Shown: positions 1,069 through 56,223 of the stretch, in pieces | Layout: every line of letters starts with the position of its first letter | Position numbering within the stretch: the stretch's first letter is position 1 | Assembly: GCF_020080045.1 (NCBI RefSeq) | Contig: NZ_CP083451.1 | Location: 2,963,001-3,027,000 of the forward strand | Direction: 5' to 3' | DNA: 64,000 bases | DNA from: Comamonas odontotermitis | GTDB lineage: Bacteria; Pseudomonadota; Gammaproteobacteria; Burkholderiales; Burkholderiaceae_C | Notes under the pieces: model-generated | What the model was told of the DNA's origin: nothing | The model's database searches: none | The model's input: only the letters and a program-made list of their open reading frames with translations | Translations under genes and position numbers: made by a program

Positions 1069-1094
1069 AAAAACGATAGCAATAGTGCTAACGG
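1069..1094 (+). repeat. Dispersed repeat copy upstream of rpsA
   Basis: The stretch AAAAACGATAGCAATAGTGC followed by TAACGG matches the half-core ATAGC of the repeat family described under findings. It sits in the rpsA leader, about 30 bp before the start codon. Confidence 0.45.
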
Positions 1095-1120
1095 AAACCT
1101 GACTATGTCTAAGGAAACAC

Positions 1121-2803
1121 ATGTCTGAATCTTTTGCCGCCCTTTTTGAAGAGTCGTTGACACGCACCGAAATGCGTCCTGGCGAAGTCATCACCGCTGA
1201 AGTCGTGCGCGTTGAGCACAACTTTGTCGTGGTGAACGCCGGCTTGAAGTCGGAAGCCTATGTGCCAATCGACGAATTCAAGAACGACCAGGGCGAAATC
1301 GAAGTCCAAGTGGGTGACTTCGTGTCCGTGGCCATCGGCTCCATCGAAAACGGCTACGGCGACACCATCCTGTCGCGCGATACCGCCAAGCGTCTGGCCT
1401 CGTGGCTGTCGCTGGAAAAGGCGCTGGAATCGGGCGAATTCGTGACCGGTACCACCTCCGGCAAGGTCAAGGGCGGTCTGACCGTTCTGGTCAACGGCAT
1501 CCGCGCATTCCTGCCCGGTTCGCTGATCGACACCCGTCCTATCAAGGATCTGACCCCTTACGAAAACAAGACCCTGGAATTCAAGGTCATCAAGCTCGAC
1601 CGCAAGCGCAACAACGTGGTGCTGAGCCGCCGCGCTGTGGTGGAAGCCTCGATGGGCGAAGAGCGCGCCAAGCTGATGGAAACCCTGAAGGAAGGCTCCA
1701 TCGTTCAAGGCGTGGTCAAGAACATCACCGAATACGGTGCGTTCGTGGATCTGGGCGGCATCGACGGCCTGCTGCACATCACCGACATGGCATGGCGCCG
1801 CGTGCGTCACCCATCCGAAGTGGTGACCGCTGGCCAGGAAATCACCGCCAAGATCCTGAAGTTCGACACCGAGAAGAACCGCGTGTCCCTGGGTCTGAAG
1901 CAAATGGGCGACGATCCATGGCTGGGCGTGTCGCGCCGCTACCCATCGAGCACCCGTCTGTTCGGCAAGGTCACCAACATTGCCGACTACGGCGCGTTCG
2001 TGGAACTGGAACCAGGCATCGAAGGTCTGGTGCACGTTTCCGAAATGGACTGGACCAACAAGAACGTTGCTCCTTCCAAGCTCGTGTCCCTGGGCGACGA
2101 AGTCGAAGTCATGGTTCTGGAAATCGACGAAGACAAGCGTCGCATCTCCCTGGGCATGAAGCAATGCAAGGCCAACCCATGGCAAGAATTTGCACAGAAC
2201 ACCAAGCGCGGTGACCGCGTGAAGGGCCCGATCAAGTCGATCACCGACTTCGGCGTGTTCGTGGGCCTGGCCTCGGGCATCGACGGCCTGGTGCACCTGT
2301 CCGACCTGTCGTGGAACGAAACCGGCGAAGCCGCTGTTCGTAACTACAAGAAGGGCCAGGAAGTGGAAGCCATCGTGCTGGCCGTGGACGTGGACCGTGA
2401 GCGTATCTCGCTGGGCATCAAGCAGCTCGACAGCGACGCCTTCACCACGTTCGCTACCGTGAACGACAAGGGCCAGATCGTGACCGGCAAGGTCAAGTCT
2501 GTGGATGCCAAGGGCGCTGAAATCGACCTGGGCGACGACATCGTCGGCTACCTGCGTGCTTCGGAAATCTCCCAAGACCGCGTGGAAGACGCTCGCTCGG
2601 TGCTGAAGGAAGGCGAAGAAGTGACCGCCGTGGTGATCAACGTGGATCGCAAGAGCCGCAGCATCTCCCTGTCGATCAAGCAGAAGGACCATGCTGAGCA
2701 GCAAGAAGCCATGGCTTCCCTGTCGCACCAGTCGTCCAAGGAAAATGCTGGTACCACCAGCCTGGGCGCTCTGCTGCGCGCCAAGCTGGACGCCGACAAG
2801 TAA
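1121..2803 (+). CDS. rpsA: 30S ribosomal protein S1
   Basis: Protein of 560 residues, the usual S1 length. It contains six OB-fold S1 repeats, visible as recurring motifs such as [21 protein letters not shown] blocks ([54 protein letters not shown]) each ending in RISLG-type strands. S1 binds mRNA on the small subunit and is needed for translation of most structured leaders. It starts [13 protein letters not shown] after GGAAACAC. The gene sits between cmk and ihfB as in most proteobacteria. The leader of about 190 nt contains a small hairpin (TGCGGA/TCCGCA near 1036-1050) that could take part in autoregulation; this is inference. Confidence 0.98.
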
Positions 2804-2815
2804 TTGACGGCCCCT

Positions 2816-2855
2816 GCTACCGACATACCTTGCGCAGCTTGGTATAGTCGGTAGC
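2816..2855 (+). other. Near-perfect inverted repeat between rpsA and ihfB
   Basis: GCTACCGACATACC at 2816-2829 pairs with GGTATAGTCGGTAGC at 2841-2855, with one bulged base and an 11-nt loop. No T-run follows, so it looks more like an attenuating or mRNA-stabilising hairpin than an intrinsic terminator. Confidence 0.55.
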
Positions 2856-2928
2856 CAGCATTCAAGGTGGGCGCCCAGTGCGCCCATCTACGTTTTGCGT
2901 ATATAGATTACTGAAGATTCCCATTCGT

Positions 2929-3267
2929 ATGACCCGATCCGATCTGATTGAAGAGCTTGCCGAACGTTTTCACCAGCTGACCCAGCGGGATGCGGAGCAG
3001 GCTGTCAAAACGATTCTCGAGGCCGTCGAAGATTCCCTCGTGCGCGGCCAGCGCATCGAGATCCGTGGTTTTGGCAGTTTCACCATCACCCACCGCCAGC
3101 CGCGCCTGGGCCGCAACCCCCGCAGCGGCGAAGCCGTGCAGGTACCAGCCAAGCGCGTTACGCATTTCAAGCCAGGCAAGGCGCTGCGTGAAGCCGTGGA
3201 CGACCCCGCCAACATCCTGGCATCGGCCAGCAACCCGCAAGCCCAGTCGCAGAACGACGACGAATAA
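2929..3267 (+). CDS. ihfB: Integration host factor subunit beta
   Basis: Protein of 112 residues of the HU/IHF family. It begins [14 protein letters not shown] and has the DNA-binding arm signature [31 protein letters not shown]-beta pairs with IHF-alpha (not in this window) to bend DNA at specific sites. The start at 2929 was chosen because the family begins MTRSDLIE; the frame is open a little further upstream. The C-terminus is slightly extended ([19 protein letters not shown]), common in this group. It lies downstream of rpsA as in most proteobacteria. Confidence 0.96.
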
Positions 3268-3323
3268 GACAGCTTGCGCCGTGGCAAGCCACGCACCTGA
3301 TCACTAGATGGATCACGATCAAC

Positions 3324-3348
3324 AACGCTCCCGATGGAGCGTTTTTTT
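3324..3348 (+). terminator. Intrinsic terminator after ihfB
   Basis: Stem CGCTCC (3326-3331), loop CGAT, stem GGAGCG (3336-3341), then seven T. The stem is extended by flanking A and T bases. Confidence 0.85.
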
Positions 3349-3507
3349 ATTGCTCGTCTGTTCCAGAGCAATAAACATTCAGGATACCCAATGGCGTCCG
3401 CGGTTTCGGGTGCTTTTTGCGCCCTGTTTTACAGATGTGACAAACCGGCATGCCGCTGACGCGCTATGCTGGGGCGGTACTGTAAAAATTCATAGCAATC
3501 CACGCAT

Positions 3508-5157
3508 ATGCACCAAGCGCAAAGCAGTATTTTCACCAATATCTCCCGCCGCCAATGGCTGCAGTGGCTCGCTGCCACAGGCCTGGGCAGCATGTCACTC
3601 GCTGGTCAGGCCGCCTTGGCGATTGCTGCCTGGCCGGTCAGCGAGCAACTCTTTGGTCTGGGCGTAGCCAGTGGCGAGCCCGCCAGCGACGGTGTGGTGC
3701 TGTGGACCCGGCTCCTGCCCAGCCCGCGCATGCCCTTGCTTGCGCCGCAAGCGGTACAGTGGGAAATCGCGCACGACGCGCAGTTCCAGCACATCGTGCA
3801 AAAAGGTGAAGCGCTGGCCTCGCCAGACTGGGGCCACAGCGTGCATGTACTGGCAAGCGGTCTGGCACCTGACCGCTGGTACCACTACCGATTTCATTGC
3901 AATGGCCAGACCAGTGCCGTTGGCCGCACACGCACAACACCCGCAGAAGGCGCACCCGTGCAGCGCATGCGACTCGTGTTTGCCTCCTGCCAGCGCTGGG
4001 AACACGGCTACTACGCGGCTTGGCGCCATGCGCGGGCGGATGATCCTGACCTGGTGGTCTTTTTGGGTGACTACATCTACGAATACGCATCTCCCAAGGC
4101 CAACGCCACCGACGCAAAAACCCAGGCGCTGCTCTCCGAGCTGGCGCGCCTGCAACCGCTGCCCTACCCGCGCAGCCTGCAGGACTACCGTGACCGCTAC
4201 GCGTTGCACAAAAGCGACCCAGACCTGCAGGCCATGCACGCCCACTGCCCCTGGGTCATGACCTGGGATGATCATGAGGTGGAAAACGACTACGCAGGAC
4301 TGGATGGCGTGGGCAATGCCACCGCCTTTGCCGCCAAGCGCCTGGCAGCCTACCAGGCCTTTTACGAAAACATGCCGCTGCGCGCTGCCGTAGCCGCCAA
4401 GGCCGACGTCCCAGTCAGCTCGGCCCTGCGCCACATGCAGGTCTACCGCCGGTTCAGCTGGGGCAATCTGGCTGATCTGATGGTGCTCGACGCTCGGCAG
4501 TACCGCGACATACAGGCTTGCCGCACGCCCGGCGAGAAAAGCAACGGCGCCGTCAACGCAGCCAATTGCCCCGATCTGGCCCGCAACGCCCGCAGCTTTC
4601 TTGGGTGGGAGCAGGAACGCTGGCTAGCCGAAAATCTCAAAAACAATAGCGCTTCGCGCCCATCCAGCAAACGCTGGAGCGTGATTTGCCAACAAACCCT
4701 GTTTGCCCCGCGCCACTACCCCAATGGCCGCACCAGCACCGACAGCTGGGACGGCTACCCCGCTGCGCGCCAACGCCTGATCCGTGCCATCGACCAGGCT
4801 GCACTGCGCAACACCGTGCTGCTGGGCGGTGACATTCACCAGAACTATGTCTGCCGCATCGACAACCCCGAAGCCGAGGGCCGCGCGCCCCGGGTGGTGG
4901 CGAGCGAATTCTGCGGCACCTCCATCACATCGCACTCCGGCACTACACAGGCCCGGGTCGATGCCGTCGTTGCACGCAACCCACACGTCCTGTTTGCCCG
5001 CTGCGATGAACGCGGCTATGGCCTGTGCGATATCACCCCCACGCTCTGGACCACGCAGTTGCGAGCCGTCGATGACCCGCTGCGCCCGGACAGTGGCGCC
5101 CGCACCCTGGTGCGCTTTGCAGTGGAAGACCGCGTGGCCGGGCCGCAACTCGCCTGA
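3508..5157 (+). CDS. phoD: PhoD-like alkaline phosphatase/phosphodiesterase, Tat-exported
   Basis: Protein of 549 residues. The N-terminus carries a twin-arginine signal (SRRQWL at residues 13-18, then a hydrophobic stretch), as expected for PhoD enzymes that fold with metal in the cytoplasm. Family motifs are in order: FASCQRW (~158), FLGDYIYEY (~186), TWDDHEVENDYAG (~252), VLDARQYR and LGGDIHQNYV (~440). These supply the Fe/Ca-binding Asp, Asn and His residues. The likely role is release of phosphate from esters in the periplasm. No clear ribosome binding site precedes the ATG at 3508, and a repeat-like CATAGCAATCC lies directly before it. A second repeat copy at 4637-4660 lies inside the gene and encodes NNSASR. 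No convincing Pho box was found. Confidence 0.9.
   Translation: MHQAQSSIFTNISRRQWLQWLAATGLGSMSLAGQAALAIAAWPVSEQLFGLGVASGEPASDGVVLWTRLLPSPRMPLLAPQAVQWEIAHDAQFQHIVQKGEALASPDWGHSVHVLASGLAPDRWYHYRFHCNGQTSAVGRTRTTPAEGAPVQRMRLVFASCQRWEHGYYAAWRHARADDPDLVVFLGDYIYEYASPKANATDAKTQALLSELARLQPLPYPRSLQDYRDRYALHKSDPDLQAMHAHCPWVMTWDDHEVENDYAGLDGVGNATAFAAKRLAAYQAFYENMPLRAAVAAKADVPVSSALRHMQVYRRFSWGNLADLMVLDARQYRDIQACRTPGEKSNGAVNAANCPDLARNARSFLGWEQERWLAENLKNNSASRPSSKRWSVICQQTLFAPRHYPNGRTSTDSWDGYPAARQRLIRAIDQAALRNTVLLGGDIHQNYVCRIDNPEAEGRAPRVVASEFCGTSITSHSGTTQARVDAVVARNPHVLFARCDERGYGLCDITPTLWTTQLRAVDDPLRPDSGARTLVRFAVEDRVAGPQLA
4637..4660 (+). repeat. Dispersed repeat copy inside phoD
   Basis: TCAAAAACAATAGC then GCTTCGCGCC. 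It matches the repeat core ATAGC followed by GCGC. It is in frame and encodes part of a variable loop between conserved PhoD blocks. Confidence 0.5.
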
Positions 5158-5279
5158 AGCAAGCCCCAGGGAAATCGTTTACATCTGGATGCGTGTGTCG
5201 GTGCAGTCCCGCAATGGCTTATCCGGCAGAGCAGGTAGGATGCAGCATCCCACTACAGATATAGAGAAGGAACACCGCC

Positions 5280-7205: not shown

Positions 7206-7224
7206 GGCCTCGGCGCCCTGCATG

Positions 7225-7248
7225 AAAAAGGAGCCTGCGTGGCTCCTT
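7225..7248 (-). terminator. Hairpin terminator between ggt and the cupin gene
   Basis: AAGGAGCC (7228-7235) and GGCTCCTT (7241-7248) with a 5-nt loop. On the minus strand the stem runs into TTTTT, so it best serves the cupin gene; it may also act for ggt. Confidence 0.6.
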
Positions 7249-7299: not shown

Positions 7300-7770
7300 T
7301 CACTGCTCGGCAATCACATCAATGAACACGAGTGGCTCCGTGCCCGTTGCCGTCAGTCCATGCGATTCGCCCTTGCGCACGATGGTCACGTCGCCCGCCT
7401 TCACCGGCACGTCCTTGCCGTCCTTGTCCTTGAAGACGCCGGTGCCCGAGACGATGATGTAGGTGTCCTCGTTCGTGGTGTGCGGGTGGTAGCCGATGGA
7501 GTCGCCCGGCTTCAAGCTCAGCCAGCTGATTTCCTTGATCGCCTCGTCCTTTTTGGCCTTGTCGCGGGTGAAGGCATATTCGCCCACCAGCACGCCCTGG
7601 CCGCCACCGGCCTTTTCCTTCTGCGCCTTGATCATGCCTTCCTTGGCGTACACCTCGGAATGAGCTTTTTCGCCCAATAGCAGAGCGCCAGCAGCTATCA
7701 AAACAGAAGCACTCAGCCACAACGTGCGGCGGTGCGAGATACGAGATGCTGTGCTTGGGGTGTGGTGCAT
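7300..7770 (-). CDS. Exported cupin-domain protein
   Basis: Protein of 156 residues with an N-terminal Sec signal (SVLIAAGALLLG core, cleavage probably near KAHSE). One cupin domain follows. Motif 1 is GYHPHTTNEDTYIIVSGTG, containing the His-x-His and Glu metal ligands, and motif 2 is AGDVTIVRKGESHGL with the last His. The start at 7770 (MHHTPST) precedes the signal peptide; the frame is open further upstream but that stretch has no signal-like sequence. The substrate is unknown; small periplasmic cupins may be isomerases, dioxygenases or sensors. Repeat copy 7683-7706 encodes the hydrophobic core of the signal peptide. Confidence 0.82.
   Translation of the reverse strand: MHHTPSTASRISHRRTLWLSASVLIAAGALLLGEKAHSEVYAKEGMIKAQKEKAGGGQGVLVGEYAFTRDKAKKDEAIKEISWLSLKPGDSIGYHPHTTNEDTYIIVSGTGVFKDKDGKDVPVKAGDVTIVRKGESHGLTATGTEPLVFIDVIAEQ
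7683..7706 (-). repeat. Dispersed repeat copy inside the cupin signal peptide
   Basis: On the minus strand this reads TTTTGATAGCTGCTGGCGCT, the best-matching copy of the family in the window. Translated it gives VLIAAGAL, the hydrophobic core of the signal peptide. Confidence 0.65.
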
Positions 7771-8830: not shown

Positions 8831-8849
8831 TTCAAAAAACGATAGATCA

Positions 8850-11926: not shown

Positions 11927-12751
11927 ATGGAGCTCACTCACACCCAACTCGAAAGCCAGATACTTGCCCTGGCCCGGCAGCGGCTCAAGGCGGATGCCGC
12001 CGGTCTGTCGCTGTGCCTCATGACCGCCGAGGGCGACGAGGTAATCGCCATTCGCGCCGATCAGGCAAAGCCGTCTGCCAGCACCATCAAGATTGCCATC
12101 CTGCTGGCCTTGCTGGAGCAGGCGGATGCAGGGCATCGCCAATTGAGCGAGCGCATCGCCATCACGCCCGGAAACTGCGTCGGCGGCACCGGTATGCTGC
12201 ACGCACTGCCGAGCGTGGAACAGCTCACGCTCGCCGAGCTGTGCGGGCTGATGATGGTGGTGAGCGACAACACCGCCACCAACCAGCTCATCGACCTGCT
12301 GGGCTTTGATGCCATCAACCAGTACCTGCAGGCCGCAGGCCTTGCGCACAGTGCGCTGCGCCGCAAGATGATGGACAGCGAAGCGCAAAAGGCCGGCCGC
12401 GACAACACCACCAGCGCGCGCGACCTGTGCCTGCTGATGCACCGCCTGCAGCAAACAGGCCCGCTCGGTGTCGCCATGCAAGGCTTTGCGCTGGATCTGA
12501 TGGCCACCGAGCGCCACCAGCCCCTGCTCTGCGCAGCGCTGCCAGCAGGCGTGCGGGCGAGCAACAAGACCGGGCAACTGCCCGATCTGCGCAACGACGC
12601 AGGCATTTTTTGCAAAGGCAATCACTCGCTCGTCCTGGCCGTGATGGCCACCGGCTTCCAGGACCCAGTGACCAGCGCCAGCATCCACGGCGGCCAGGGA
12701 GAGCTGCTGCTGGCCGATATCGGCACGTTGGTCTGCAACACCTGTCTATGA
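11927..12751 (+). CDS. Class A beta-lactamase-fold serine hydrolase
   Basis: Protein of 274 residues with the three active-site motifs of the penicillin-binding/beta-lactamase fold: S52-T-I-K55, S113-D-N115 and K214-T-G216. The omega-loop Glu of true class A beta-lactamases (ExxLN) is not evident; that region reads RDNTTSARD. There is no signal peptide, so it stays in the cytoplasm, which argues against an antibiotic-resistance role. It more likely cleaves a D-amino-acid peptide or cyclic amide imported by the operon. The start at 11927 has AAGG 6 nt upstream; an in-frame ATG at 11921 is too close to that site. Confidence 0.8.
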
Positions 12752-12774
12752 CTGCCAACGCAGAGGAGACTTTC

Positions 12775-15284: not shown

Positions 15285-15385
15285 CGGTCTTGTGTCTCCT
15301 TGGAAACCACTGTGCCACAGATGGCTGACATGGAAATTGCAATGGCCGATGGGCTCTCACCAAGAAGACGGATCGGTGAATATGG

Positions 15386-15444
15386 TAAAAATGACTGCTA
15401 GCGCCCGCCCATTGGTCATCATCAATCCTTTTTTCATAGCAATC
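15386..15444 (+). repeat. Two-part dispersed repeat copy upstream of dnaG
   Basis: TAAAAATGACTGCTAGCGCC at 15386-15405 and TTTTTTCATAGCAATC at 15429-15444 match the two ends of the repeat family. The 255-bp gap between the acyl-CoA ligase and dnaG otherwise shows only a -10-like GACAAT at 15528-15533. Confidence 0.55.
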
Positions 15445-20426: not shown

Positions 20427-20460
20427 TTTTCGCTATCGAAGCAATAGCACTACGCACTCC
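20427..20460 (+). repeat. Dispersed repeat copy between rpoD and fdhD
   Basis: TTTTCGCTATCGAAGCAATAGC then ACTACGCACTCC: inverted halves GCTAT and ATAGC followed by the GC-rich tail typical of the family. Confidence 0.5.
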
Positions 20461-20502
20461 AGGGGTGCGCGCGGAATGCTGTTTTGGTTCAGAATTGCGC
20501 CT

Positions 20503-21379: not shown

Positions 21380-21416
21380 TCAAAAAACGTAGCATATCAG
21401 CAACACTTATCGCGCC
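21380..21416 (+). repeat. Possible degenerate repeat copy downstream of fdhD
   Basis: CAAAAAACGTAGCATATCAG followed by CAACACTTATCGCGCC. It keeps the A-run, a TAGC core and the GCGC end, but is more diverged than other copies. Confidence 0.3.
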
Positions 21417-21525
21417 ATCGCCCCAGATTCGGGTACTGCGCCTATACATTGCGGATCAAGAGCTATTAAACTTGTAGCAGATATTTCTCGCGACTATGGT
21501 CGCGCCCAATATTGTGGATTTGAAT

Positions 21526-29970: not shown

Positions 29971-30107
29971 GAGGAAGTGCCTTTCAAAGGTTTGTAAACA
30001 CCTCGAAGCGAGTGCATTCGAGATGACTCCATTCTGAAAAAAACACCCTGACGGATTGCCCACCGGAAGATGACATTCTCGCCACCTGCGTGTTACAAAA
30101 AGAATAT

Positions 30108-30132
30108 ACAAACCATAGCAGCCAGCACTTTC
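30108..30132 (+). repeat. Dispersed repeat copy between DUF4148 gene and czcA
   Basis: ACAAACCATAGCAGCCAGCA then CTTTC: ATAGC, three-base spacer, CAGCACTT, close to the family core. The 240-bp gap otherwise holds the terminator at 30167-30200. Confidence 0.5.
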
Positions 30133-30166
30133 CCGGTAAACCCTGCGCCCCTTCCGATGCAGAATA

Positions 30167-30200
30167 AAAAACGCCATGCCGGGTTGGGCATGGCGTTTTT
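30167..30200 (-). terminator. Terminator of the czcCBA operon
   Basis: AAAAACGCCATGCC (30167-30180) and GGCATGGCGTTTTT (30187-30200): 14-bp perfect stem, 6-nt loop. On the minus strand it follows the czcA stop by about 10 nt and ends in a T-run; the symmetry allows action in both directions. Confidence 0.88.
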
Positions 30201-42148: not shown

Positions 42149-42601
42149 ATGCATTCATTGCGTTTCCACCTTGCCGGCTGCTGCGCCAGCGCCCTGCTGC
42201 TGTGCGGGGCCGCGCAGGCCGCCCAGCCAGGTGCCTTTTCCGTCACCGAAACCAAATCCGCCGTCGGCAACAAGGCGGCCAAGCCACCGCGCACCAAAGA
42301 CCGCTGTATCGGGCCGGAGCTGGTGGACAAGGAGGGTTTTCTGTACCCCGACATGATCCTGTCGCAGCATTTCAGCCAGTGCCGCATCAAGGACAGCAAG
42401 CTGGTGGGCAAGAACCGCAAGGAATGGACGGTGGCCTGCGGCAAGATGCTGACCGCCCAGGCCTACCAGGTGAACACAGGCGCAGACTTTCGCCTGCACA
42501 TCAATGCCCAGTTGCTGGGTGGCGCGATGAAACAAACGCTGGACTATGAAGCCACCTCGCTCCAGCGCGCCTGCACGGCAGACGACAGCCCCCTGGAATG
42601 A
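42149..42601 (+). CDS. Small exported protein of unknown function
   Basis: Protein of 150 residues with a Sec signal peptide (FHLAGCCASALLLCGAAQAAQ, cleavage near residue 25). The mature part contains four cysteines (RCIG, SQCRIK, VACGK, QRACTAD), suggesting two disulfides. I do not recognise the family. It lies between ppsR and the heme operon, which runs the other way. Confidence 0.65.
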   Translation: MHSLRFHLAGCCASALLLCGAAQAAQPGAFSVTETKSAVGNKAAKPPRTKDRCIGPELVDKEGFLYPDMILSQHFSQCRIKDSKLVGKNRKEWTVACGKMLTAQAYQVNTGADFRLHINAQLLGGAMKQTLDYEATSLQRACTADDSPLE

Positions 42602-42625
42602 AAATGCGGCTTGGCGCACGGCTGT

Positions 42626-42660
42626 AAAGCGCCAACTGCTATAAAAACAATAGAGATTGC
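42626..42660 (-). repeat. Dispersed repeat copy downstream of hmuV
   Basis: On the minus strand TTTTTATAGCAGTTGGCGCT, one of the closest matches to the family core. It fills most of the 59-bp gap between the small exported protein gene and the hmuV stop. Confidence 0.6.
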
Positions 42661-43587
42661 CTACCCGCCAACGCCTGCGCCTGCAAACAGGTATTGCTGC
42701 GTTCCGTCCGGCGCGGTAGTGGCAAAGCAGCCCACCCCCCACACGTCGCGCATGGTTTGCGGCGAAAGCACCTCGGCCACCGGGCCGTGCAGGCAGCCAC
42801 CGCCGTGCACCAGCAGCGCGTCATCCGCATAGCGCAGCGCCAGGTTCATATCGTGCACAACGACGACCACGCCCACACCCCGCACCTGCGCCCAGTGCTG
42901 CAGCAGGTCCATGGAACGGTGCTGCCAGGCCAGATCCATGGCGGCGGTCGGTTCATCGAGCAGAAGCCAGCGCGCCTGACCGCCAGCAGGTGGCTCCCAC
43001 ACCTGTGCCAGTGCGCGCGCCAGATGTGCGCGTGCACGCTCCCCGCCTGAGAGGCTGCGTACGCTGCGGCCTGCAAAGCCCTCCATCTGCGTGGCAGCCA
43101 TGGCGTCGCCAACAATGGCGGCCTCGTTGCGACTGGGTTGCAGGCGGTGGGCATAGCGGCCCAGTTCCACGACTTCCTGCACGGTAAAGTCAAAGGCCAC
43201 CGAGCCGTCCTGCACCATCATGGCGCGGCGCCGGGCCAGATCGGCAGCCGACCACCTGGAGAGTGGCAGGCCATCGAGCAGAACGCGGCCCGCATGGGGC
43301 GCCCACTGGCCCGTCAGGGTGGCCAGCAGGCTGGATTTGCCAGCGCCATTAGGCCCCACAATGGCCGTGAGCCTGCCGGGCGCAATGTGGGCATGCAGGC
43401 GCACCAGCACATCGCCACCGGGCACGCCAACTTCCAGCCGATCCAGCTGCCAGCCACTGTCCTTGACAGACGGACTGTCACAAGCGTCCTGCGCCACCAT
43501 TTTTGCTACCTTGTTGATAGCTATCTGCGCTTCATGGTCAGGCACCTGCGTGCTGGATTCTCTGAAAACCTCGAATGGTTTGAACAT
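42661..43587 (-). CDS. hmuV: Heme ABC transporter ATP-binding protein HmuV
   Basis: Protein of 308 residues. Walker A GPNGAGKSS, Q-loop MMVQDG, ABC signature LSGGERARAHLARAL, Walker B WLLLDEPTAAMDL and the switch VVVHDMNLAL are all present. It powers heme import through HmuU. It is longer than the usual ~260 residues because of an N-terminal extension (~45 residues) that contains a repeat copy (43500-43533). GGGAGGAG lies 5 nt before the ATG. Last gene of the heme operon. Confidence 0.92.
   Translation of the reverse strand: MFKPFEVFRESSTQVPDHEAQIAINKVAKMVAQDACDSPSVKDSGWQLDRLEVGVPGGDVLVRLHAHIAPGRLTAIVGPNGAGKSSLLATLTGQWAPHAGRVLLDGLPLSRWSAADLARRRAMMVQDGSVAFDFTVQEVVELGRYAHRLQPSRNEAAIVGDAMAATQMEGFAGRSVRSLSGGERARAHLARALAQVWEPPAGGQARWLLLDEPTAAMDLAWQHRSMDLLQHWAQVRGVGVVVVVHDMNLALRYADDALLVHGGGCLHGPVAEVLSPQTMRDVWGVGCFATTAPDGTQQYLFAGAGVGG
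43500..43533 (+). repeat. Dispersed repeat copy inside the hmuV N-terminal extension
   Basis: TTTTTGCTACCTTGTTGATAGC then TATCTGCGCTTC: facing GCTA and ATAGC halves and the GCGCTT end. It is in frame and encodes part of the non-conserved N-terminus. Confidence 0.55.
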
Positions 43588-43597: not shown

Positions 43598-44818
43598 CTA
43601 CAGTTGCCGCCGGAACTGGCGCAGCATGGCGAGGAACAGCGGAACCCCGACCAGCGCCGTCAGCACGCCCAGCGGCAGTTCAGCCGGAGCAACCACTGTG
43701 CGCGCAAACGCATCGGCAAACACCACCATGGCCGCGCCCAGCAAGGCAGATGCTGGCAGCACCACGCGGTGATCCGGCCCGGCGATCAACCGCACCCAGT
43801 GCGGCGCCACCAGGCCAATGAAACCAATCATGCCGCACGCTGCGGTGATGCAGCCCACCACCAGCGCCGCCACGATGACGGCCAGGCGCTTGGTGCGCTC
43901 CACCGCCACACCCATCAGGCTGGCCTGCGCCTCGCCCAGCGCAATGGCGTTGAGGGGCTGCGCCAGGCGCTGCGCCACCAAGGCACTGGCAGCCACCACG
44001 GCGCACGCCACGATGGCCACCGGCCAGCGCGCGCCACCCAGGCTGCCCATCAACCACAGTTGCAGGTTGCGCAGTTGCTCGTCGGTCGACAGAAAACTGA
44101 GCAGGCCCAGGCCCGCCATGGCCAGCGCATTGATGGCCACACCTGCGAGCAGCATGACACCGATACGGGTGCCGCCACCTGCCTGCGCCAGGCTGTAGAT
44201 CAGGCCCGTGGTCACAAGACCACCCGTGAAGGCGCACAGCATCAGCGGCCAGCTGCCCAGGCTGCGTGGCACCGAGGGAAACCACAGCGCGCCCATCACA
44301 ATCAGTGCCGCCGCCGCCAGCGCAGCGCCGCTGCTCACCCCGATCAGGCCCGGGTCGGCCAGCGGGTTGCGAAACAGCCCCTGCATCAAGGCGCCCGCCA
44401 GACCCAGGCCGGCGCCTGCCGCCAGGCCCAGCACCAGACGCGGCGCGCGAATGGCGGCGAACACCTGTTGCTCGGTACTGCCTGCGTCCGTGCCGCCCTG
44501 CCACCAGTGCTGCAGCGCGCTCCAGGCAATGGCGGGAAGCCGGGCCGCGTCGATGGCAAAAGCCCCCTGCCCGGCCGCAAATACAAAGGCGGCCAGCACC
44601 AATAAAGCCATCAGGCCGATGGTGTGGGCCTTTTTCAGTCGAAAAACACCCTTCTGGCGCCTGGGTTGGACGCCTGACGCTATTAAAATTGAAGGATCAC
44701 TTGATACACCCTGCCGCCCGGCACGTGGCGAACCGGCGGATTGCAATGGAGACTGGCGCTCGGTACCCGGCGCCAGGCGCGAGCCCGCGGCGCCAGTTGC
44801 AGTCACGGCATCGCTCAT
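43598..44818 (-). CDS. hmuU: Heme ABC transporter permease HmuU
   Basis: Protein of 406 residues of the FecCD/BtuC family with about ten membrane helices; motifs APRLVLGLAAGAGLGLAGALMQGLFRNPLADPGLIG (in parts) and GFIGLVAPHWVRLIAGPDHR are diagnostic. It forms the membrane channel for heme in the inner membrane. The first ~60 residues before the first helix are unusual for the family, and repeat copy 44671-44694 encodes part of them (SILIASG). The start at 44818 overlaps the hmuT stop (ATGA). Confidence 0.92.
   Translation of the reverse strand: MSDAVTATGAAGSRLAPGTERQSPLQSAGSPRAGRQGVSSDPSILIASGVQPRRQKGVFRLKKAHTIGLMALLVLAAFVFAAGQGAFAIDAARLPAIAWSALQHWWQGGTDAGSTEQQVFAAIRAPRLVLGLAAGAGLGLAGALMQGLFRNPLADPGLIGVSSGAALAAAALIVMGALWFPSVPRSLGSWPLMLCAFTGGLVTTGLIYSLAQAGGGTRIGVMLLAGVAINALAMAGLGLLSFLSTDEQLRNLQLWLMGSLGGARWPVAIVACAVVAASALVAQRLAQPLNAIALGEAQASLMGVAVERTKRLAVIVAALVVGCITAACGMIGFIGLVAPHWVRLIAGPDHRVVLPASALLGAAMVVFADAFARTVVAPAELPLGVLTALVGVPLFLAMLRQFRRQL
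44671..44694 (-). repeat. Dispersed repeat copy inside the hmuU N-terminal extension
   Basis: On the minus strand CAATTTTAATAGCGTCAGGC. It encodes ILIASG in frame, next to the first membrane segment. Confidence 0.55.
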
Positions 44819-45813
44819 GCCTGCACGGCCTGCAAACCCTGGTGCAGGGTACGTACCGCCAGTGGCAGGCGCGGGCCAAAGCCGAGCAGCTGGCTGGCTT
44901 CCAGGGCGATCAAGGCCTTGTTCCTGTAGGCGGGAGTCAGCGCAAGTTCCGGGCGCGCCCAGAACTTGGCCTCTCCACCCACCGCCTCCACGCCCTGTGT
45001 AGTCGTCACGATCACCTGGGGCGCAGCCTGCGCCATGGCTTCTGCCGTCAGCGGCCGGTAACCGCCAAAGCCTTGCATGACATTGCTGGCCCCACCCATG
45101 CGCAGCAGCGCATCGCCCGCCGTGCCCTGGCCCGCCACCTGTGGCGTTCCGCTGTGCGACAGCACAAACAGGGCGCGCGGCAAACGGTTCGCTGCCACCG
45201 TGGTGCGTACCAGGGCCTGCACGGCGTCCCACTCCTTCTGCAAATCCTGGGCCATCTGCGCGGCCTGCGCCTGTCTGCCAGTGGCCTGCCCCACCAGCCG
45301 GATCTTGCGCAGTACCTCATCCCAGCTGTGGTCCGACTGCACCAGGGCAATGGCCACGCGGGTCTGGGCGATCTGCTGCAGCACCACGGGAGGGCCCGCT
45401 TCGGTGGTGCCGATCACCACATCGGGCTTGAGCGACAGCACGCCTTCGGCGGCCAGCTGGCGCACATAGCCCACCTTGGGCATGCGGTTGGCCGCTTCGG
45501 GGTAGTTGCTGGTGGTATCGCTGCCCACCAGCAGGGACTGCGCGCCCAGCTGGTAAACGATCTCGGTCAACGCACCACTCAGGCTGATGAGGCGTGTTGC
45601 CGCAGGCGGCTCAACGCCTACATAGGGCAGCAGCGCCGCCTTGGCGCCGCCATCCACTGCATTTGCTACATTTTTAGAAGCTGCTGGCGCAGACTGGGCA
45701 AGCGCCAGGGTGCCAAAGGGCATCAGGGCTGCGCCGCCAGCGGCCAGCAGCCACGCGCGGCGGTTGGCATGGGGGCCGTTGCTGCGCTGGCCCGCGCGAG
45801 AGAAATCATCCAT
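44815..45813 (-). CDS. hmuT: Heme-binding periplasmic protein HmuT
   Basis: Protein of 332 residues. The signal sequence contains NRRAWLLAAGGAALMPFGTLALA; the paired Arg raises the possibility of Tat export. The FecB/TroA fold follows (RLISLSGALTEIVYQLGAQSLLVGSDTTSNYP in parts, LKPDVVIGTTEAGPP, GGYRPLTAEAMAQAAPQVI). It hands heme to HmuU. AAGGAGG lies 5 nt before the ATG at 45813. Repeat copy 45661-45690 encodes the stretch just after the signal peptide (APAASKNVANA). Confidence 0.92.
   Translation of the reverse strand: MDDFSRAGQRSNGPHANRRAWLLAAGGAALMPFGTLALAQSAPAASKNVANAVDGGAKAALLPYVGVEPPAATRLISLSGALTEIVYQLGAQSLLVGSDTTSNYPEAANRMPKVGYVRQLAAEGVLSLKPDVVIGTTEAGPPVVLQQIAQTRVAIALVQSDHSWDEVLRKIRLVGQATGRQAQAAQMAQDLQKEWDAVQALVRTTVAANRLPRALFVLSHSGTPQVAGQGTAGDALLRMGGASNVMQGFGGYRPLTAEAMAQAAPQVIVTTTQGVEAVGGEAKFWARPELALTPAYRNKALIALEASQLLGFGPRLPLAVRTLHQGLQAVQA
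45661..45690 (+). repeat. Dispersed repeat copy inside hmuT
   Basis: ATTTGCTACATTTTTAGAAG then CTGCTGGCGC: matches GCTGCTGGCGC of the core exactly. It lies in frame in the linker after the signal peptide. Confidence 0.55.
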
Positions 45814-47005: not shown

Positions 47006-47016
47006 CGGAATGCTCC

Positions 47017-47042
47017 TTTTTCAATAGCTAGTGGCGCTTATT
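47017..47042 (+). repeat. Dispersed repeat copy between hmuR and hmuS
   Basis: TTTTTCAATAGCTAGTGGCG then CTTATT, very close to the core. It takes up much of the 63-bp intergenic gap, directly next to the hmuS Shine-Dalgarno. Confidence 0.6.
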
Positions 47043-47068
47043 ACGAAAGCGCCATCGGCTCATTTGGC

Positions 47069-49381
47069 TTAAAACTCTGCCACCAGGGTGATCTTGGCGG
47101 ACCGTCCGGGCTGGGTGTATGCATCGATCACCGCCAGATTGGAGGCAAGACCCCTCACGTCCGACCAGCGCCAGACCTTCTTGTCGGTCAGGTTGTAGAG
47201 ACCGACGTTCAGGCGCAGATCCTTGCGGATGCGCCATTGCGCAGTCAGATCCACCACGGTGGCCGACGGGTTCAGGAACTGGGTGCCGCCCGAAGGATTG
47301 ACGGTGTCCTTGGCCTTCTTTCCCTGGGAGTAGTTCAGGCCCAGCTGTGCTGTCCACTGGGCGGCATCGGCGCGCAAACCCAGGGTGAGGCGCTGAGGAT
47401 CGATGGACGAAAGCGGCTCGCCGCTGGTGGTATCGTGCCCCTGGGTACGGCCCCATGCGAAAGGCGTGCTCCAGCCGATGCCCGCATAGCGCCCCCAGTC
47501 GGCACGGCCCTTGACCTCCAGCCCGCTGATATTGACCTTGCCGCGGTTGATGGCCTGGTAAATACTCGGATCGCCTGGCTTGCCCGTACCACCCACCTGC
47601 ACGAGGTCGTCGATGAAGTCCTTGTACCGGCCGGTGAACGCGGCCACATCGAGCGAGACATTGGCAAGCCGGCCCCGTACGCCCACCTCGAGGTTCTGGC
47701 TCGTCTCAGGCTTCAGATTGGGGTTGGGAATGGTCTTGTAGTTGCCGACCGGGTTCTCAAAAAACGCATTGACCTGGCCCGCGTTGGGCGCGCGGAAGCC
47801 CTTGGCGTAGTTACCAAACACACGCCAGTCGGAATTCACCTGGTACATCACGCCCAGCTTGGGCGATGTGGCATTGCCCGACAGCGACACCGCCTGCGCG
47901 TTGAAGCCCGCCTGGTCGGCTTTGATGCGGAAATGGTCGTAGCGCAGCCCCGGCGTGATCGTCCAGTTGCCAAAGCTGATCTCGTCCTGCCCGTACAGCG
48001 CCCAGCTCGACTCGGTGGTGTCGGGAAAGCGCTTGAGCGGAAAGGTCTCGCCCACGGGCGGCGTCACGCCGGTCTGCAGGTTTTCTACATCGGTGCGCAC
48101 ATAGTCCAGGCCGTAGGTGAACTGCTGTGCCATGCTGCTGCCGCTCTTGATGAGCTTGCGCGCCTGCACGTTGGCCTGGAAGGTCTTTTCCTGGTAGGTC
48201 ACATCGCGCGTGCGGTCTGCAGCAGTGAGGCGGTCTTCGTAGATGAACTCGCGCGAATCGGCGTTCTGGTAGCTCAGCGATGCCTTTACATCATCCAGCA
48301 CCGGAGCATCAAAATTGCGCCACTCGCCCGCCCAGGTGCCGCGCGTACGTTTCATGTCGGTGGTGGATTCCGAATCGATCACAGCAGTGGAGGCCGTGGC
48401 CGGCGGCGCAGTGCGTGCCGTGTAGAGCTGGTAATCCACCTTTTTGTCGACATGCTCGGCCGTGAAGGTGTGTTTCTGGTCGGCTGTCGGGCGCAGCACC
48501 ACCTTGCCGAGCAGGGAGGCATCCTTGTCATGCTGCGGATTGGGCAGGGTGCGGCGGCTGTCGATGGTGTCGATATCACCCATGTTCTTGAGCTCGCGGC
48601 TGCGCCCCAGGTTGACGCCCAGCAGCCATTCCAGGGAATCGCTGGGCTTGCCAGCCACCGTCAGGCCCAGGGTTTTGCCGGTGTTTTCGCTGTCATAGCC
48701 AATGCTTGCACGGCCGCCAAAGGTCTTGCCGTCCTTGAGCAGGTTGGACGGATCGGTGGTGATGAAGTTGACCAGGCCCGCCATGCCGTCCGAGCCGTAC
48801 AGCGCCGAAGTGGCGCCACGCACCACCTCCACGCGCTGCACCAGGCCCACATCCAGATAATCGCGCCCGAAGGCGTTGGCGCTGAACACATAGCTGCGCG
48901 GCAGGCGGATGCCATCGACCATCATCAGCACCCGGTTGCCATCCAGGCCACGGATGTTGAAGCCCGCATTCTGATCACGCCCGGTACTGCCCGATGCCAG
49001 CGTAAAACGCGCCGGGCTGCGCTTGACGGACACGTTGGGCATGTCTCGCGCCACATCCCGGATGTCGCGCACCTGTTGCTCCTCCATCTGCTGGGCATTG
49101 AGTACATCAATGCTCATCGGCAACTCGTCAGGGTCCTGCTCGTGGCGCGATCCGCTGATCACCATTTCCTTGAGCACGGGGCCATCGGCTGCAGCAAGCT
49201 GAACAACGGCCGGGTTGGCAGCGGCAACCGTGGTACTGGCGGAAGTGTCCGGCGAGGTTTGGGCTCCGGCCGCTTGCGCGGCACATAGCAATGCGGCCAG
49301 CGCCAGCGGTTGCAACACCAGCACCTTGCCGGGCTGGCCACCTGCAAATGCGCAGGATTCAGACGAAGGCATGCAGCGCAT
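47069..49381 (-). CDS. hmuR: TonB-dependent heme/hemoprotein receptor
   Basis: Protein of ~770 residues from the ATG at 49381 (GTG at 49405 and ATG at 49372 are alternatives; none has a ribosome binding site). A signal peptide ending near GAQ is followed by a TonB-box-like EMVISGSRH. Then come the plug domain (FNIRGLDGNRVLMMVDGIRLP; GATSALYGSDGMAGLVNF) and a 22-strand barrel ending ITLVAEF. Heme receptors carry FRAP and NPNL motifs; both are present (FRAPNAGQV and NPNLKPET). The segment between them contains no histidine, unlike well-studied heme receptors. First gene of the heme operon. Confidence 0.93.
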   Translation of the reverse strand: MRCMPSSESCAFAGGQPGKVLVLQPLALAALLCAAQAAGAQTSPDTSASTTVAAANPAVVQLAAADGPVLKEMVISGSRHEQDPDELPMSIDVLNAQQMEEQQVRDIRDVARDMPNVSVKRSPARFTLASGSTGRDQNAGFNIRGLDGNRVLMMVDGIRLPRSYVFSANAFGRDYLDVGLVQRVEVVRGATSALYGSDGMAGLVNFITTDPSNLLKDGKTFGGRASIGYDSENTGKTLGLTVAGKPSDSLEWLLGVNLGRSRELKNMGDIDTIDSRRTLPNPQHDKDASLLGKVVLRPTADQKHTFTAEHVDKKVDYQLYTARTAPPATASTAVIDSESTTDMKRTRGTWAGEWRNFDAPVLDDVKASLSYQNADSREFIYEDRLTAADRTRDVTYQEKTFQANVQARKLIKSGSSMAQQFTYGLDYVRTDVENLQTGVTPPVGETFPLKRFPDTTESSWALYGQDEISFGNWTITPGLRYDHFRIKADQAGFNAQAVSLSGNATSPKLGVMYQVNSDWRVFGNYAKGFRAPNAGQVNAFFENPVGNYKTIPNPNLKPETSQNLEVGVRGRLANVSLDVAAFTGRYKDFIDDLVQVGGTGKPGDPSIYQAINRGKVNISGLEVKGRADWGRYAGIGWSTPFAWGRTQGHDTTSGEPLSSIDPQRLTLGLRADAAQWTAQLGLNYSQGKKAKDTVNPSGGTQFLNPSATVVDLTAQWRIRKDLRLNVGLYNLTDKKVWRWSDVRGLASNLAVIDAYTQPGRSAKITLVAEF

Positions 49382-51015: not shown

Positions 51016-51063
51016 GCAGCCGGACAGGCATCCAAGCAAGATAACAATCCAGGAGACAAAGCC

Positions 51064-52704: not shown

Positions 52705-53641
52705 ACGCCAGCAGCCTGCCAACGACCCGACCGTTCCTCCCGCCTATACGCCGCAGGCACAGGATGCGCCTGACCGCATCCGTGTGCACTACGGCAGCCT
52801 GACGAGCAGCCAGAGACAGGTGGCAGACTACCTGCTTGCGCATCCTTTTGAAGCTGCCACCCTGAGTATCGATGCCATGGCCGCCGAATGCACAGTCTCG
52901 GTGGCCACCATGAACCGCTTTGCCAGCGCCCTGGGCTACGGCAGTTACAGCAGTTTCCGCAACCACTGGCAGCAACTGCTGCAGCCGGGCATGGCACCGC
53001 TCGACAAGCTGCAGCAGCAGCGCAACATGCCCAGCACCGCCCACCGGCGCCTGCAATCCACCCTGCACAACGGCGCCGCGCAGGCGCAGACTGCAGCTGC
53101 CCTGCTCGACCCTGCAGCCACCGACGCCATGGGGCACCACATTGCCAAAGCCCGCCGCATTGCGGTGCTGGGCAGCGATGTGAGTGCCTATATCGCGGGG
53201 TACTTTGCCAGCTACGCCAGCCTTTTTCGCCCAGATGTGGAGTGCCTTCCCCAGGCCGGAGGCCCCAGCGAAACGCAGCGCAAGCTGATGTCGCTGGGGC
53301 AGGACGATCTGCTGCTGGCCATCTCGCTGCCTCGCTATTCCAGCCAGACGCTGGAGCTGTGCGCCCTGGCGTACGCACGGCAGATTCCCATCATCGCCAT
53401 CACTGACCGCCCGGACGCCCCCATTGCCGCGTACACGCAGCAGATATTGCTGGCCCCGGCCCAGCACCCCATGCTGCCTGCATCAGCCATGGGCGTGCTG
53501 GGTCTGCTTGAAGGGCTTTGCACCGTGCTGGCTGCCAGCAGCCCCTGGAGCGCGGAAGACATGCGCCAGCGTGCGCAGCTGGCCGATACGTTCCATGTGG
53601 ACACCGGCCCGCGCGCCCGTGCGGCACGCAAGACCCCCTGA
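52694..53641 (+). CDS. MurR/RpiR-family transcriptional regulator
   Basis: Protein of 315 residues. The N-terminal helix-turn-helix domain (LTSSQRQVADYLLAHPFEAATLSIDAMAAECTVSVATMNRFASALGYGSYSSFRNHW, residues ~36-92, given here only as landmarks LTSSQRQ and VATMNRF) is followed by a SIS sugar-isomerase-like domain (RIAVLGSDVSAYIAGYFA, LLLAISLPRYSSQTLELC). Such regulators sense phosphorylated or sugar-like ligands. It overlaps the binding-protein gene by 11 nt and probably controls this operon through the site at 49726. Confidence 0.9.
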   Translation: MCAKRQQPANDPTVPPAYTPQAQDAPDRIRVHYGSLTSSQRQVADYLLAHPFEAATLSIDAMAAECTVSVATMNRFASALGYGSYSSFRNHWQQLLQPGMAPLDKLQQQRNMPSTAHRRLQSTLHNGAAQAQTAAALLDPAATDAMGHHIAKARRIAVLGSDVSAYIAGYFASYASLFRPDVECLPQAGGPSETQRKLMSLGQDDLLLAISLPRYSSQTLELCALAYARQIPIIAITDRPDAPIAAYTQQILLAPAQHPMLPASAMGVLGLLEGLCTVLAASSPWSAEDMRQRAQLADTFHVDTGPRARAARKTP

Positions 53642-53673
53642 AACCTTCCCCTTCGCCCGCCTCTGCCCTGCCC

Positions 53674-55269: not shown

Positions 55270-55285
55270 CCCGCCGGGCCGTTGA

Positions 55286-55349
55286 TTTTGCTATTGAATC
55301 AGGAGTAAAGGCGCAGATGCATCAAGCGCTGGAGGCTGATTTATCAATA
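55286..55349 (+). repeat. Full-length-looking dispersed repeat copy
   Basis: Left part TTTTGCTATTGAATCAGGAG and AAAGGCGC, right part AAGCGCTGGAGGCTGATTTA and TCAATA. The two ends are imperfect inverted copies around a GCGC centre, which suggests that the complete element is a ~64-bp palindrome and most other copies are halves. Confidence 0.6.
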
Positions 55350-55368
55350 TGAAATACGGGCACCAACA

Positions 55369-55400
55369 AAAAACCCATCTGCAGCAAAACAGGTGGGTTT
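55369..55400 (-). terminator. Terminator downstream of the PheC-like gene
   Basis: AAACCCATCTG (55371-55381) and CAGGTGGGTTT (55390-55400) pair with one wobble. On the minus strand it ends in TTTTTT; it lies between two convergent genes. Confidence 0.75.
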
Positions 55401-55431
55401 ACGCCGGGGCAGGCGCCGGCTCAAGAGCGGC

Positions 55432-56223
55432 TTATTTGAGCCACTTTTGCGATTCCTGCTGCAACACGCCACGCAGCGCCAGAACATCCCAGGTAAATTG
55501 CATCACACGGCTGTAATCAGCGTCATCGGCGGGCAGCATGAAGCCCAGTTGATTGACGGGAGTCAAGGGCTTATCCAGATACGCCGCATGCAAGCGCGGA
55601 TCGGCCTTGCTGTAATGCAGCGCTTCGTAGGTCTCGGTGATCATCACGTCGCCCTTGCCTTCGGCAATCAGCGCGGGAATCTCGGCATTCTTGTCGTGGG
55701 TAGCAATCTGCGCGTTCTGCATGTTCTGCAGCACATAGGCCTCGTTGGTGCCGCCCGGATTCTTGATGACGCGCACACTGGCCTGGTTCAGCGCCTCGGG
55801 CGTGGTGAACTTGTCCTTGTCAGCTGCCCGCACCAGAGCCACCTTGCCAAACGGCGCGTAGCCCGGCAGCATCTGCACCTTGCTGATGCGTGCCACATTG
55901 CGGGTGATGCCGCCCACAGCCACATCAAACTTGTTTTCCTGCAGGTCCGCCATGAGCTTGGGCCAGGTCGTATCCACATACTGCACCTTGACGCCCATCT
56001 CCTTGGCCATGGCCTCGATCACTTCGATGTCATGGCCCGCATATTTGCCATCGGCCTTCATTGCAAAGGGGCGGTAATCGCCGGGCGTACCCACCCGTAG
56101 CACCTTGGCCTGCATGATGGCATCCAGGCGCGGTCCCGCATGCGCCGAGGCAGAGGAAAATATGGTCACTACGCCTGCCGCGCTGAGCATGGCAGCTATC
56201 AATTTTGATCTATTGCTTTGCAA
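55432..56223 (-). CDS. Periplasmic solute-binding-fold protein, cyclohexadienyl dehydratase-like
   Basis: Protein of 263 residues with a Sec signal (SKLIAAMLSAAGVVTIFSSASAHA). The type 2 binding fold closely resembles cyclohexadienyl dehydratase PheC: VLRVGTPGDYRPFA, VDTTWPKLMADLQENKFDVAVGGITR (in parts), VIKNPGGTNEAYV, GDVMITETYEALHY and GFMLPADD. A Glu occupies the place (ITxxxE) of the catalytic acid of PheC as I recall it. It may therefore make phenylalanine precursors in the periplasm, or be an amino-acid-binding protein from the ancestral group. Single gene with its own terminator. Repeat copy 56191-56216 encodes part of the signal peptide. Confidence 0.8.
   Translation of the reverse strand: MQSNRSKLIAAMLSAAGVVTIFSSASAHAGPRLDAIMQAKVLRVGTPGDYRPFAMKADGKYAGHDIEVIEAMAKEMGVKVQYVDTTWPKLMADLQENKFDVAVGGITRNVARISKVQMLPGYAPFGKVALVRAADKDKFTTPEALNQASVRVIKNPGGTNEAYVLQNMQNAQIATHDKNAEIPALIAEGKGDVMITETYEALHYSKADPRLHAAYLDKPLTPVNQLGFMLPADDADYSRVMQFTWDVLALRGVLQQESQKWLK
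56191..56216 (-). repeat. Dispersed repeat copy in the PheC-like signal peptide
   Basis: On the minus strand ATCAAAATTGATAGCTGCC, matching the core. It encodes SKLIAA, the start of the signal peptide. Confidence 0.6.

What the first reader, a model, noticed from the sequence alone, without database searches (positions are those of the whole stretch)
1069..56216. A short dispersed repeat with core GATAGCTGCTGGCGCT occurs about fifteen times
Copies were read at 1069, 4637, 7683, 15386, 20427, 30108, 42626, 43500, 44671, 45661, 47017, 55286 and 56191, with weaker ones near 690, 3484, 21380, 21460 and 41164. They share an A/T run, ATAGC, a 3-5 nt spacer and (G)GCGCT. Copies lie on both strands, about half of them inside genes. 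The copy at 55286-55349 shows two inverted ends and may be the full element. The density of about one per 4 kb implies thousands of copies per genome. I do not know a published name for it.
Basis: seen in the sequence. Interest (0 to 1): 0.72.

Follow-up and report, generated by a model that had tools for sequence, protein, structure and literature searches.

The report
Palindromic DNA repeat of Comamonadaceae bacteria
A roughly 66-base palindromic DNA repeat is scattered through the genomes of many bacteria of one family, mostly between genes and often just behind them, but sometimes inside them, where it is read as part of the protein; no published name for it was found.

Summary
The repeat is real. 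The 16-base core alone is weak in the window, but a profile learned from other species finds 18 places, against 0 in the reversed window and 2 in 20 simulated windows together. The unit is an imperfect palindrome of about 66 bp, about 1 per 5 kb in a 400 kb sample, so about a thousand per genome. It occurs, patchily, in Acidovorax, Comamonas, Ottowia and related genera; of 195 genomes of the order outside the family none has more than one match. Copies are densest between convergent genes and scarcest inside genes. Genic copies favour two of six strand/frame combinations; one is a 17-codon segment absent in two homologues. The Pfam model DUF1010 begins with a translation of this repeat, also in an ORF between dfrA12 and aadA2 of class 1 integrons. 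I read it as an old REP/MITE-like non-autonomous repeat, fixed here. Its mobiliser is unproven; a RAYT-like Y1 transposase is one candidate. The GTAG tag (REP) and target duplication (MITE) are not met.

The parts
1016..1082 (-). element copy, weak (centre 1049)
   Evidence: profile score -1.7; -5.0 at the same place in G186
3478..3544 (+). element copy overlapping the start codon of a PhoD-like phosphatase gene (3508-5157)
   Evidence: score 11.9; Pfam PhoD; alignable in G186 (not anchored)
4632..4698 (+). element copy inside the PhoD-like gene; could be chance coding resemblance
   Evidence: score 27.7; 30.5 in G186
7646..7712 (-). element copy with the exact 16-base core, in the N-terminal hydrophobic segment of a cupin-domain protein (frame extended by eye)
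   Evidence: score 26.8; reads SVLIAAGALLLG; Pfam Cupin_2; 22.8 in G186
15377..15443 (+). element copy between divergent genes
   Evidence: score 4.4; 6.5 in G186
20430..20496 (+). element copy, intergenic
   Evidence: score 19.2; 27.0 in G186
21414..21480 (-). element copy, intergenic, weak
   Evidence: score 4.0; 4.0 in G186
   Evidence: score 0.2; 0.2 in G186
   Evidence: score 21.2; 28.9 in G186
   Evidence: score 19.1; no Pfam family; 14.1 in G186
30101..30167 (+). element copy, intergenic
   Evidence: score 9.5; 18.9 in G186
42590..42656 (-). element copy between convergent genes
   Evidence: score 29.4; 13.0 in G186; not seen in G155, G165, G167
43503..43569 (+). element copy in the N-terminal coding part of an ABC transporter ATPase, before the Pfam domain
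   Evidence: score 31.6; 20.7 in G186; stretch 57, 51 and 57 nt shorter in G155, G165, G167; Pfam ABC_tran from residue 64
44631..44697 (-). element copy near the start of a FecCD-type transporter gene, weak
   Evidence: score -0.6; -6.4 in G186; Pfam FecCD
45663..45729 (+). element copy in the N-terminal part of a periplasmic binding protein, before the Pfam domain
   Evidence: score 30.9; 2.6 in G186; stretch 57 nt shorter in G155, G165 and G167; Pfam Peripla_BP_2 from residue 76
47010..47076 (+). best-preserved element copy of the window, filling the gap between two genes
   Evidence: score 60.6; 11.4 in G186, where 10 extra bases split it
55287..55353 (-). element copy between convergent genes, decayed
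   Evidence: score 2.3; 14.2 in G186
56147..56213 (-). element-like place in the N-terminal segment of a solute-binding protein, weak and doubtful
   Evidence: score -3.2; -12.2 in G186; reads SKLIAAMLSAAG; Pfam SBP_bac_3

Best explanation
It is a family of old, non-autonomous palindromic repeats (REP/MITE-like) of Comamonadaceae genera, with the Acidovorax-type consensus TTGCTATnAATTTGATAGCTGCTnGCGCTTGATGGATAAGCGCTAGAGGCCAATTTGACTnnAAAAT. Shown: one sequence family of fixed length, on both strands, patchy within and between genera, and in the samples confined to this family. Shown: densest between convergent genes, scarcest inside genes, and nearer to stop codons than to starts in tandem gaps. 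Shown: it can sit inside coding sequence, and one such copy is present in some homologues and absent in others. Inferred: it came as a unit of about 50-66 bp by a transposition-like event, spread long ago, and is now fixed and decaying in this genome. Inferred: it persists where it does least harm, behind genes, where its hairpin may also serve as a 3'-end structure of mRNA. Inferred with low confidence: a Y1 (RAYT-like) transposase mobilised it.
For: Family and excess. Patchy spread: 32 of 150 genomes of the family (own included) have the strict two-arm pattern, 22 of them five or more times; 0 to 371 copies in 29 species of one genus; of 195 genomes of the order outside the family 4 have one match each, against 9 matches of the backward control there. 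Location, copies per kb of gap or gene (my gene calls): Acidovorax-type loci convergent 60/17.0, tandem 123/77.2, divergent 13/30.2, genic 25/766; own 19/9.5, 42/54.0, 9/16.1, 15/371; Ottowia 22/8.6, 32/21.0, 5/8.3, 15/180. Nearer to the upstream stop than to the next start in tandem gaps: 22 of 27 strong own copies, median centre 36 bp behind the stop; with the second profile 30 of 42, 20 of 32 and 73 of 123. Coding copies: 39 of 54 in two of six strand/frame combinations. Unit: 17 residues of L254 missing in P0007 and P0012, kept in P0004 and P0006; stretches 57 nt shorter in five and 51 in one of six comparisons at 43536 and 45696; four site comparisons with element-free partners. Fixed here: 14 of 17 anchored window places score >=0 at the same place in G186, about 89% identical. 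G-U over A-C in transcript-sense stems 321:265, p=0.023.
Against: No target-site duplication in 228 copies. Little sign of recent movement: the closest pair differs at 19 of 67 positions in the own 464 kb and at 7 in the Acidovorax-type loci; three near-identical pairs (1-3 differences) in Ottowia appear to come from one tandem array. Paired columns covary little: 3 of 33 pairs with z>=3 in 67 own copies, none in 36 Ottowia copies. Sites are mostly kept: 36 of 43 comparisons, although those loci were chosen for holding a copy. The other four copies in the L254 gene show no clean absence. Orientation to transcription is even in the own genome (21:21), 21:11 in Ottowia and 77:46 in Acidovorax-type loci. 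No RNA data.
Confidence: 0.66

Rival explanations
1. True REP system: the element is the REP of the RAYT-like Y1 transposase that nearly every genome of the family carries, and was copied by it through single-strand steps.
For: In 10 of 30 fetched transposase loci an element copy (score >=5) sits at the 3' end of the transposase gene, always antisense to it, five of them in genomes with 0 to 3 strict copies; only 3 such copies lie elsewhere in the same 30 loci. In 29 element-poor genomes the same flank correlates with the element profile best at one offset (r=0.34, next 0.19 on that strand). Of the six genomes richest in strict copies among the 150, four (G015, G010, G120, G085) have an intact HxH motif.
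Against: On the other strand the own profile also reaches r=0.27, and four flanks (G010, G047, G087, G097) were dropped before the count; the flank was found in 49 genomes of 70 loci. The transposase is in 142 of 150 genomes regardless of the element. The own gene has no copy behind it and has HFQ for HFH; G136 and G141, rich in copies, have also lost an HxH residue, while Comamonas-group relatives with no copy at score >=0 in the matching region have it intact. The 30 loci are orthologous, so one old insertion could explain them. The enzyme's own flank word GGGGTCAGATTC is not dispersed in the samples.
Confidence: 0.3
2. Selected functional site with no mobile past: a bidirectional transcription terminator or a binding site of a nucleoid protein or gyrase, kept at gene 3' ends.
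For: Position near stop codons and between convergent genes; conserved columns ATAGC, GCGC, AAGCGC beside free ones; site conservation; mild G-U excess.
Against: Copies inside coding sequence; 0 to 371 copies among species of one genus; presence/absence of a unit inside a gene; no T-tract in the Acidovorax-type consensus; some copies stand next to an ordinary-looking terminator, judged by eye.
Confidence: 0.2
3. DNA uptake sequence for natural transformation.
For: Short, dispersed, both strands, shared by related species.
Against: Copies are unlike one another: on average 39 of 67 differences in the own genome. The one Comamonadaceae transformation paper opened (passages of PMC4212676) shows no motif.
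Confidence: 0.03
4. Chance or codon bias: common codons for Ala and Gly make the core.
For: In the window the bare core is not very rare, and some genic matches fall in Ala-rich N-terminal segments.
Against: Reversed and simulated sequence give almost none; genes hold the fewest copies per kb.
Confidence: 0.02

Closest known systems
REP, GTAG- and CGTC-tagged palindromes (Di Nocera 2013, PMC3733652, abstract and passages; Nunvar 2010, PMC2817692, passages)
   Same: Many short palindromes per genome, mostly intergenic, behind genes and between convergent genes; some inside genes.
   Different: About 66 bp rather than 20-40 bp; GTAG at the outer end in only 9 of 86, 18 of 78 and 36 of 231 copies. 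Six genus or order names of this group do not occur in PMC3733652; in PMC2817692 only Acidovorax was looked for, without result.
Rickettsia palindromic elements (as told in the review PMC10969869, passages; original papers not read)
   Same: Palindromes found inside protein genes in frame, as added segments.
   Different: Those are about 150 bp and nearly half are genic; here about 66 bp and a minority are genic. No sequence comparison was made.
MITEs in general
   Same: Non-autonomous, inverted arms, no gene inside.
   Different: No target duplication found; a partner transposon was not searched for.
BRE, Beta-proteobacterial repeat element (Hot 2011, PMC3110155, section 14 read)
   Same: Repeat of Bordetella and Comamonadaceae, usually intergenic.
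   Different: About 90 bp, at most 29 copies, 69% GC in Bordetella; ours is 44-51% GC. Sequences were not compared.
Pfam DUF1010 (PF06231)
   Same: The first 20-30 of its 66 model positions are the translation of this DNA element on one strand and frame.
   Different: It is filed as a protein family; the rest of the model lies beyond the element.

Membership tests
REP (tagged) | GTAG or CGTC tag at one end | tested here: not met
   outer 4-mer GTAG in 9/86, 18/78, 36/231; ATAG is commonest; CGTC is not among the six commonest
REP (tagged) | high copy number, intergenic, behind genes | tested here: met
REP-RAYT system | element linked to its RAYT gene | tested here: inconclusive
   10 of 30 orthologous loci; not in the own genome; spread does not follow the gene
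MITE | inverted repeat arms | tested here: met
   imperfect palindrome over about 66 bp
MITE | target-site duplication | tested here: not met
   no clear excess over permuted pairing in 228 copies
MITE | autonomous partner with the same ends | not tested
   only the Y1 gene was looked at
Rickettsia palindromic element | in-frame copies inside genes, absent in homologues | tested here: met
   54 genic copies; one of five copies in one gene cleanly absent in two of nine homologues aligned
Rickettsia palindromic element | sequence kinship with RPE families | not tested
   no RPE sequence was fetched
BRE | about 90 bp, 69% GC | tested here: not met
   about 66 bp, 44-51% GC
Rfam families | match to a curated RNA family | tested here: not met
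   one match with E<=1 in the window, E 0.65 at 12679-12760, below its gathering score and at no element
Intrinsic terminator | transcripts end there | not testable with these tools
   needs RNA 3'-end data

The most novel reading that the evidence does not exclude
A family-wide class of protein-coding palindromes: a 50-66 bp DNA unit that spreads behind and into genes of Comamonadaceae, supplies ready reading frames (NxPLALxxQAQAAIK, LIAAxAxxxSA, LASSAYPSSASSY), and has so founded protein segments filed as DUF1010, one of which rides in an integron gene cassette of plasmids of enterobacteria.
Probability: 0.5. Interest if true: 0.75.

Novelty: new variant of a known kind. Interest (0 to 1): 0.6.

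Why it matters
A repeat present about a thousand times in a genome affects gene calls, terminator and small-RNA predictions, and protein family databases. It explains the first 20-30 of 66 positions of the Pfam model DUF1010 as translated DNA repeat. It gives a sequence tag for Comamonadaceae-type DNA elsewhere: a copy lies in the DUF1010 ORF between dfrA12 and aadA2, and that 291-base ORF is found in 771 of 5426 complete E. coli genomes. With 0 to 371 strict copies among species of one genus, it is a good system for asking how bacterial palindromes spread and why they stop.

Tried and rejected
Replichore polarity: hit lists seemed to show one strand per half chromosome. The lists are cut, apparently with forward hits kept first; the own 464 kb sample shows no polarity. 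Rejected for the own genome; not tested for the others.

First profile: trained on the own genome, it drifted to AT-rich sequence and gave false places such as 49754 in the window; its reversed controls were high (168 real against 42 reversed at score 20, before merging). I replaced it by the Acidovorax-trained profile, which was not trained on the own genome. still uses the first profile at score >=30; one search repeats the location counts with the second and gives a weaker preference for the stop side.

RAYT as driver: looked strong, weakened. Kept as a rival.

Covariation as proof of an RNA structure: weak. Target duplication: none. Rfam: nothing. Phage records: no match to the consensus. 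Viral contigs: 20 stretches of 18 contigs, only scored. The GC-rich Ottowia repeat was noted, not pursued.

DUF1010: of 9 other element-bearing ORFs given to Pfam only 1 matched it (E 0.0009, below cut-off), and weak matches also occur in 11 of 14 control genomes. The claim rests on the integron ORF (E 3e-28) and on 12 of 15 fetched own-genome matches (of 21 listed, none over the cut-off) that lie on an element on the opposite strand.

Frames: in the consensus (-1,1) is open and holds 23 genic copies, (+1,0) has one stop and holds 16, and (-1,2) is open but holds 1. So open frames alone do not explain the choice.

Gene calls are from my own simple script. Edge copies (1, 4 and 15) are left out of the location counts. 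The loci called Acidovorax-type were fetched because each holds a strict copy, and they include Comamonas, Ottowia and other genera.

Changed on checking: the inserted segment in L254 is 17 residues, not 19; the DUF1010 overlap is the first 20-30 of 66 positions, not half; confidence of the best explanation set from 0.68 to 0.66 because the stop-side preference is weaker with the second profile.
Full report
OBSERVATION. The bare 16-base core occurs once exactly in the window and 7 times within 3 mismatches, against 1.6 expected. Over the whole genome (4.83 Mb, 3 contigs) there are 124 matches within 2 mismatches against 3 for the pattern read backwards. Aligning genome copies showed a longer unit. 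In the window it finds 18 places at score >= -5 and 0 in the reversed window, and 2 in total in 20 simulated windows. In 400 kb sampled elsewhere in the genome it finds 79, against 4 reversed and 1 simulated.

ANATOMY. The unit is an imperfect palindrome centred between two GCGC blocks, with ATAGC and GCTAT further out and AT-rich outer arms. Folding of the consensus as RNA gives a central hairpin on both strands, about -22 kcal/mol. Copies are far apart in sequence: in the own genome they differ on average at 39 of 67 positions and the closest pair at 19; in the Acidovorax-type loci the closest pair differs at 7; in the Ottowia sample three pairs differ at 1 to 3, which fits a tandem array seen in L176.

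SPREAD. With a strict two-arm pattern 32 of 150 genomes of the family have a match, 22 of them five or more; the own genome has 79. In the genus of G015 (Ottowia, judged by the contig length of G189) counts run from 0 to 371 over 29 species, and 19 have a match. Of 195 genomes of the order outside the family 4 have a single match, fewer than the backward control (9 matches) there. Named carriers seen are Acidovorax, Comamonas, Ottowia, Simplicispira, Giesbergeria, Diaphorobacter, Extensimonas, Paenacidovorax and a Rhodoferax assembly, besides metagenome assemblies with broader labels. The close relative G186 keeps 14 of 17 anchored window places at score >=0. In the matching 72-74 kb of G155, G165 and G167, in the same GTDB genus, no place reaches 0, and 3, 2 and 0 reach -5.

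LOCATION. In three sets the density per kb falls from convergent to tandem to divergent gaps and is lowest in genes. In own tandem gaps 22 of 27 strong copies are nearer to the upstream stop, median 36 bp behind it. With the second profile it is 30 of 42 in the own sample, 20 of 32 in Ottowia and 73 of 123 in Acidovorax-type loci. This fits what is reported for REPs (PMC3733652, abstract and passages).

INSIDE GENES. Of 54 copies well inside called genes, 23 lie in one strand/frame combination, open in the consensus, and 16 in another, which has one stop in the consensus. They read roughly NxPLALxxQAQAAIKxxA and LIAAxAxxxSAxGxF. A third combination, also open in the consensus, holds only 1. 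One phage-type gene (LPD5 domain) holds five copies. Among nine homologues one of them is present in P0004 and P0006, replaced by variants in P0001, P0002, P0005 and P0010, part of a larger gap in P0003, and missing as 17 residues in P0007 and P0012; the other four show no clean absence. In the window, the ABC ATPase and the periplasmic binding protein have their copies before the Pfam domain, and relatives are 57 nt shorter there in five of six comparisons and 51 in the sixth. That fits gain or loss of a unit, but the alignments there are poor.

DUF1010. A plasmid search with the consensus (5 records matched) hit an ORF annotated DUF1010 between dfrA12 and aadA2 of a class 1 integron (the cassette name gcuF is recalled). 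The Pfam match begins at residue 31 of 96; the element covers about residues 30 to 52. In the own genome 12 of the 15 fetched DUF1010 matches lie on an element copy, always on the opposite strand, mostly over model positions 1 to 30 of 66. None of these passes Pfam's cut-off. DUF1010 therefore begins with a translation of this DNA. The 291-base ORF is in 771 of 5426 complete E. coli genomes and 1810 plasmid records. The two copies of the common 97% variant that I read score 63.

MOBILISER. The genome has one Y1 transposase gene, of a kind found in 142 of 150 family genomes. Ten of 30 fetched loci carry an element copy (score >=5) at the 3' end of the gene, always antisense, and element-poor genomes keep a related flank. 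Against it: the own enzyme has HFQ in place of HFH, as does G186, with dN/dS 0.06 between them, and lacks the copy, while relatives without the repeat have the intact motif. That the HxH motif is catalytic is recalled knowledge. I keep RAYT mobilisation at 0.3.

CONCLUSION. An old, REP/MITE-like palindromic repeat with no name in the papers searched (I opened PMC4212676, PMC6449761, PMC3110155, PMC2817692, PMC10969869, PMC2996958, PMC10501959 and PMC9012009 for passages or a section, and PMC3733652 for abstract and passages). It is fixed in this genome, mostly between genes, and partly absorbed into proteins.

Noticed in passing
L071:1162-1872 (own genome C1:3779845-3780552): The single Y1 transposase has lost a residue of its HxH motif (HFQ) yet evolves under strong purifying selection against G186 (dN/dS 0.06), as if kept for another use.
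   Followed up: partly
flanks of L118-L147 and L337-L376: The Y1 gene is flanked in many genera by an inverted GGGGTCAGATTCCAATTA motif; the motif is not dispersed in the samples.
   Followed up: partly
L385, L401, L402: A copy of the element lies in the DUF1010 ORF of the dfrA12-DUF1010-aadA2 cassette array, shortly before what looks like its attC end; this hints at a Comamonadaceae-type source of the cassette.
   Followed up: partly
L179:5094-5223 and L179:8250-8371: A second, GC-rich repeat family occurs in many copies in Ottowia genomes; it may be the published BRE.
   Followed up: no
L176:18227-18596: Three tandem copies of a unit of about 165 bp, each holding the element.
   Followed up: no
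L254:3743-7999: A phage-type large polyvalent (LPD5) gene holds five element copies in frame.
   Followed up: partly
L317-L336: Twenty stretches of 18 viral contigs carry a strict copy of the element.
   Followed up: no
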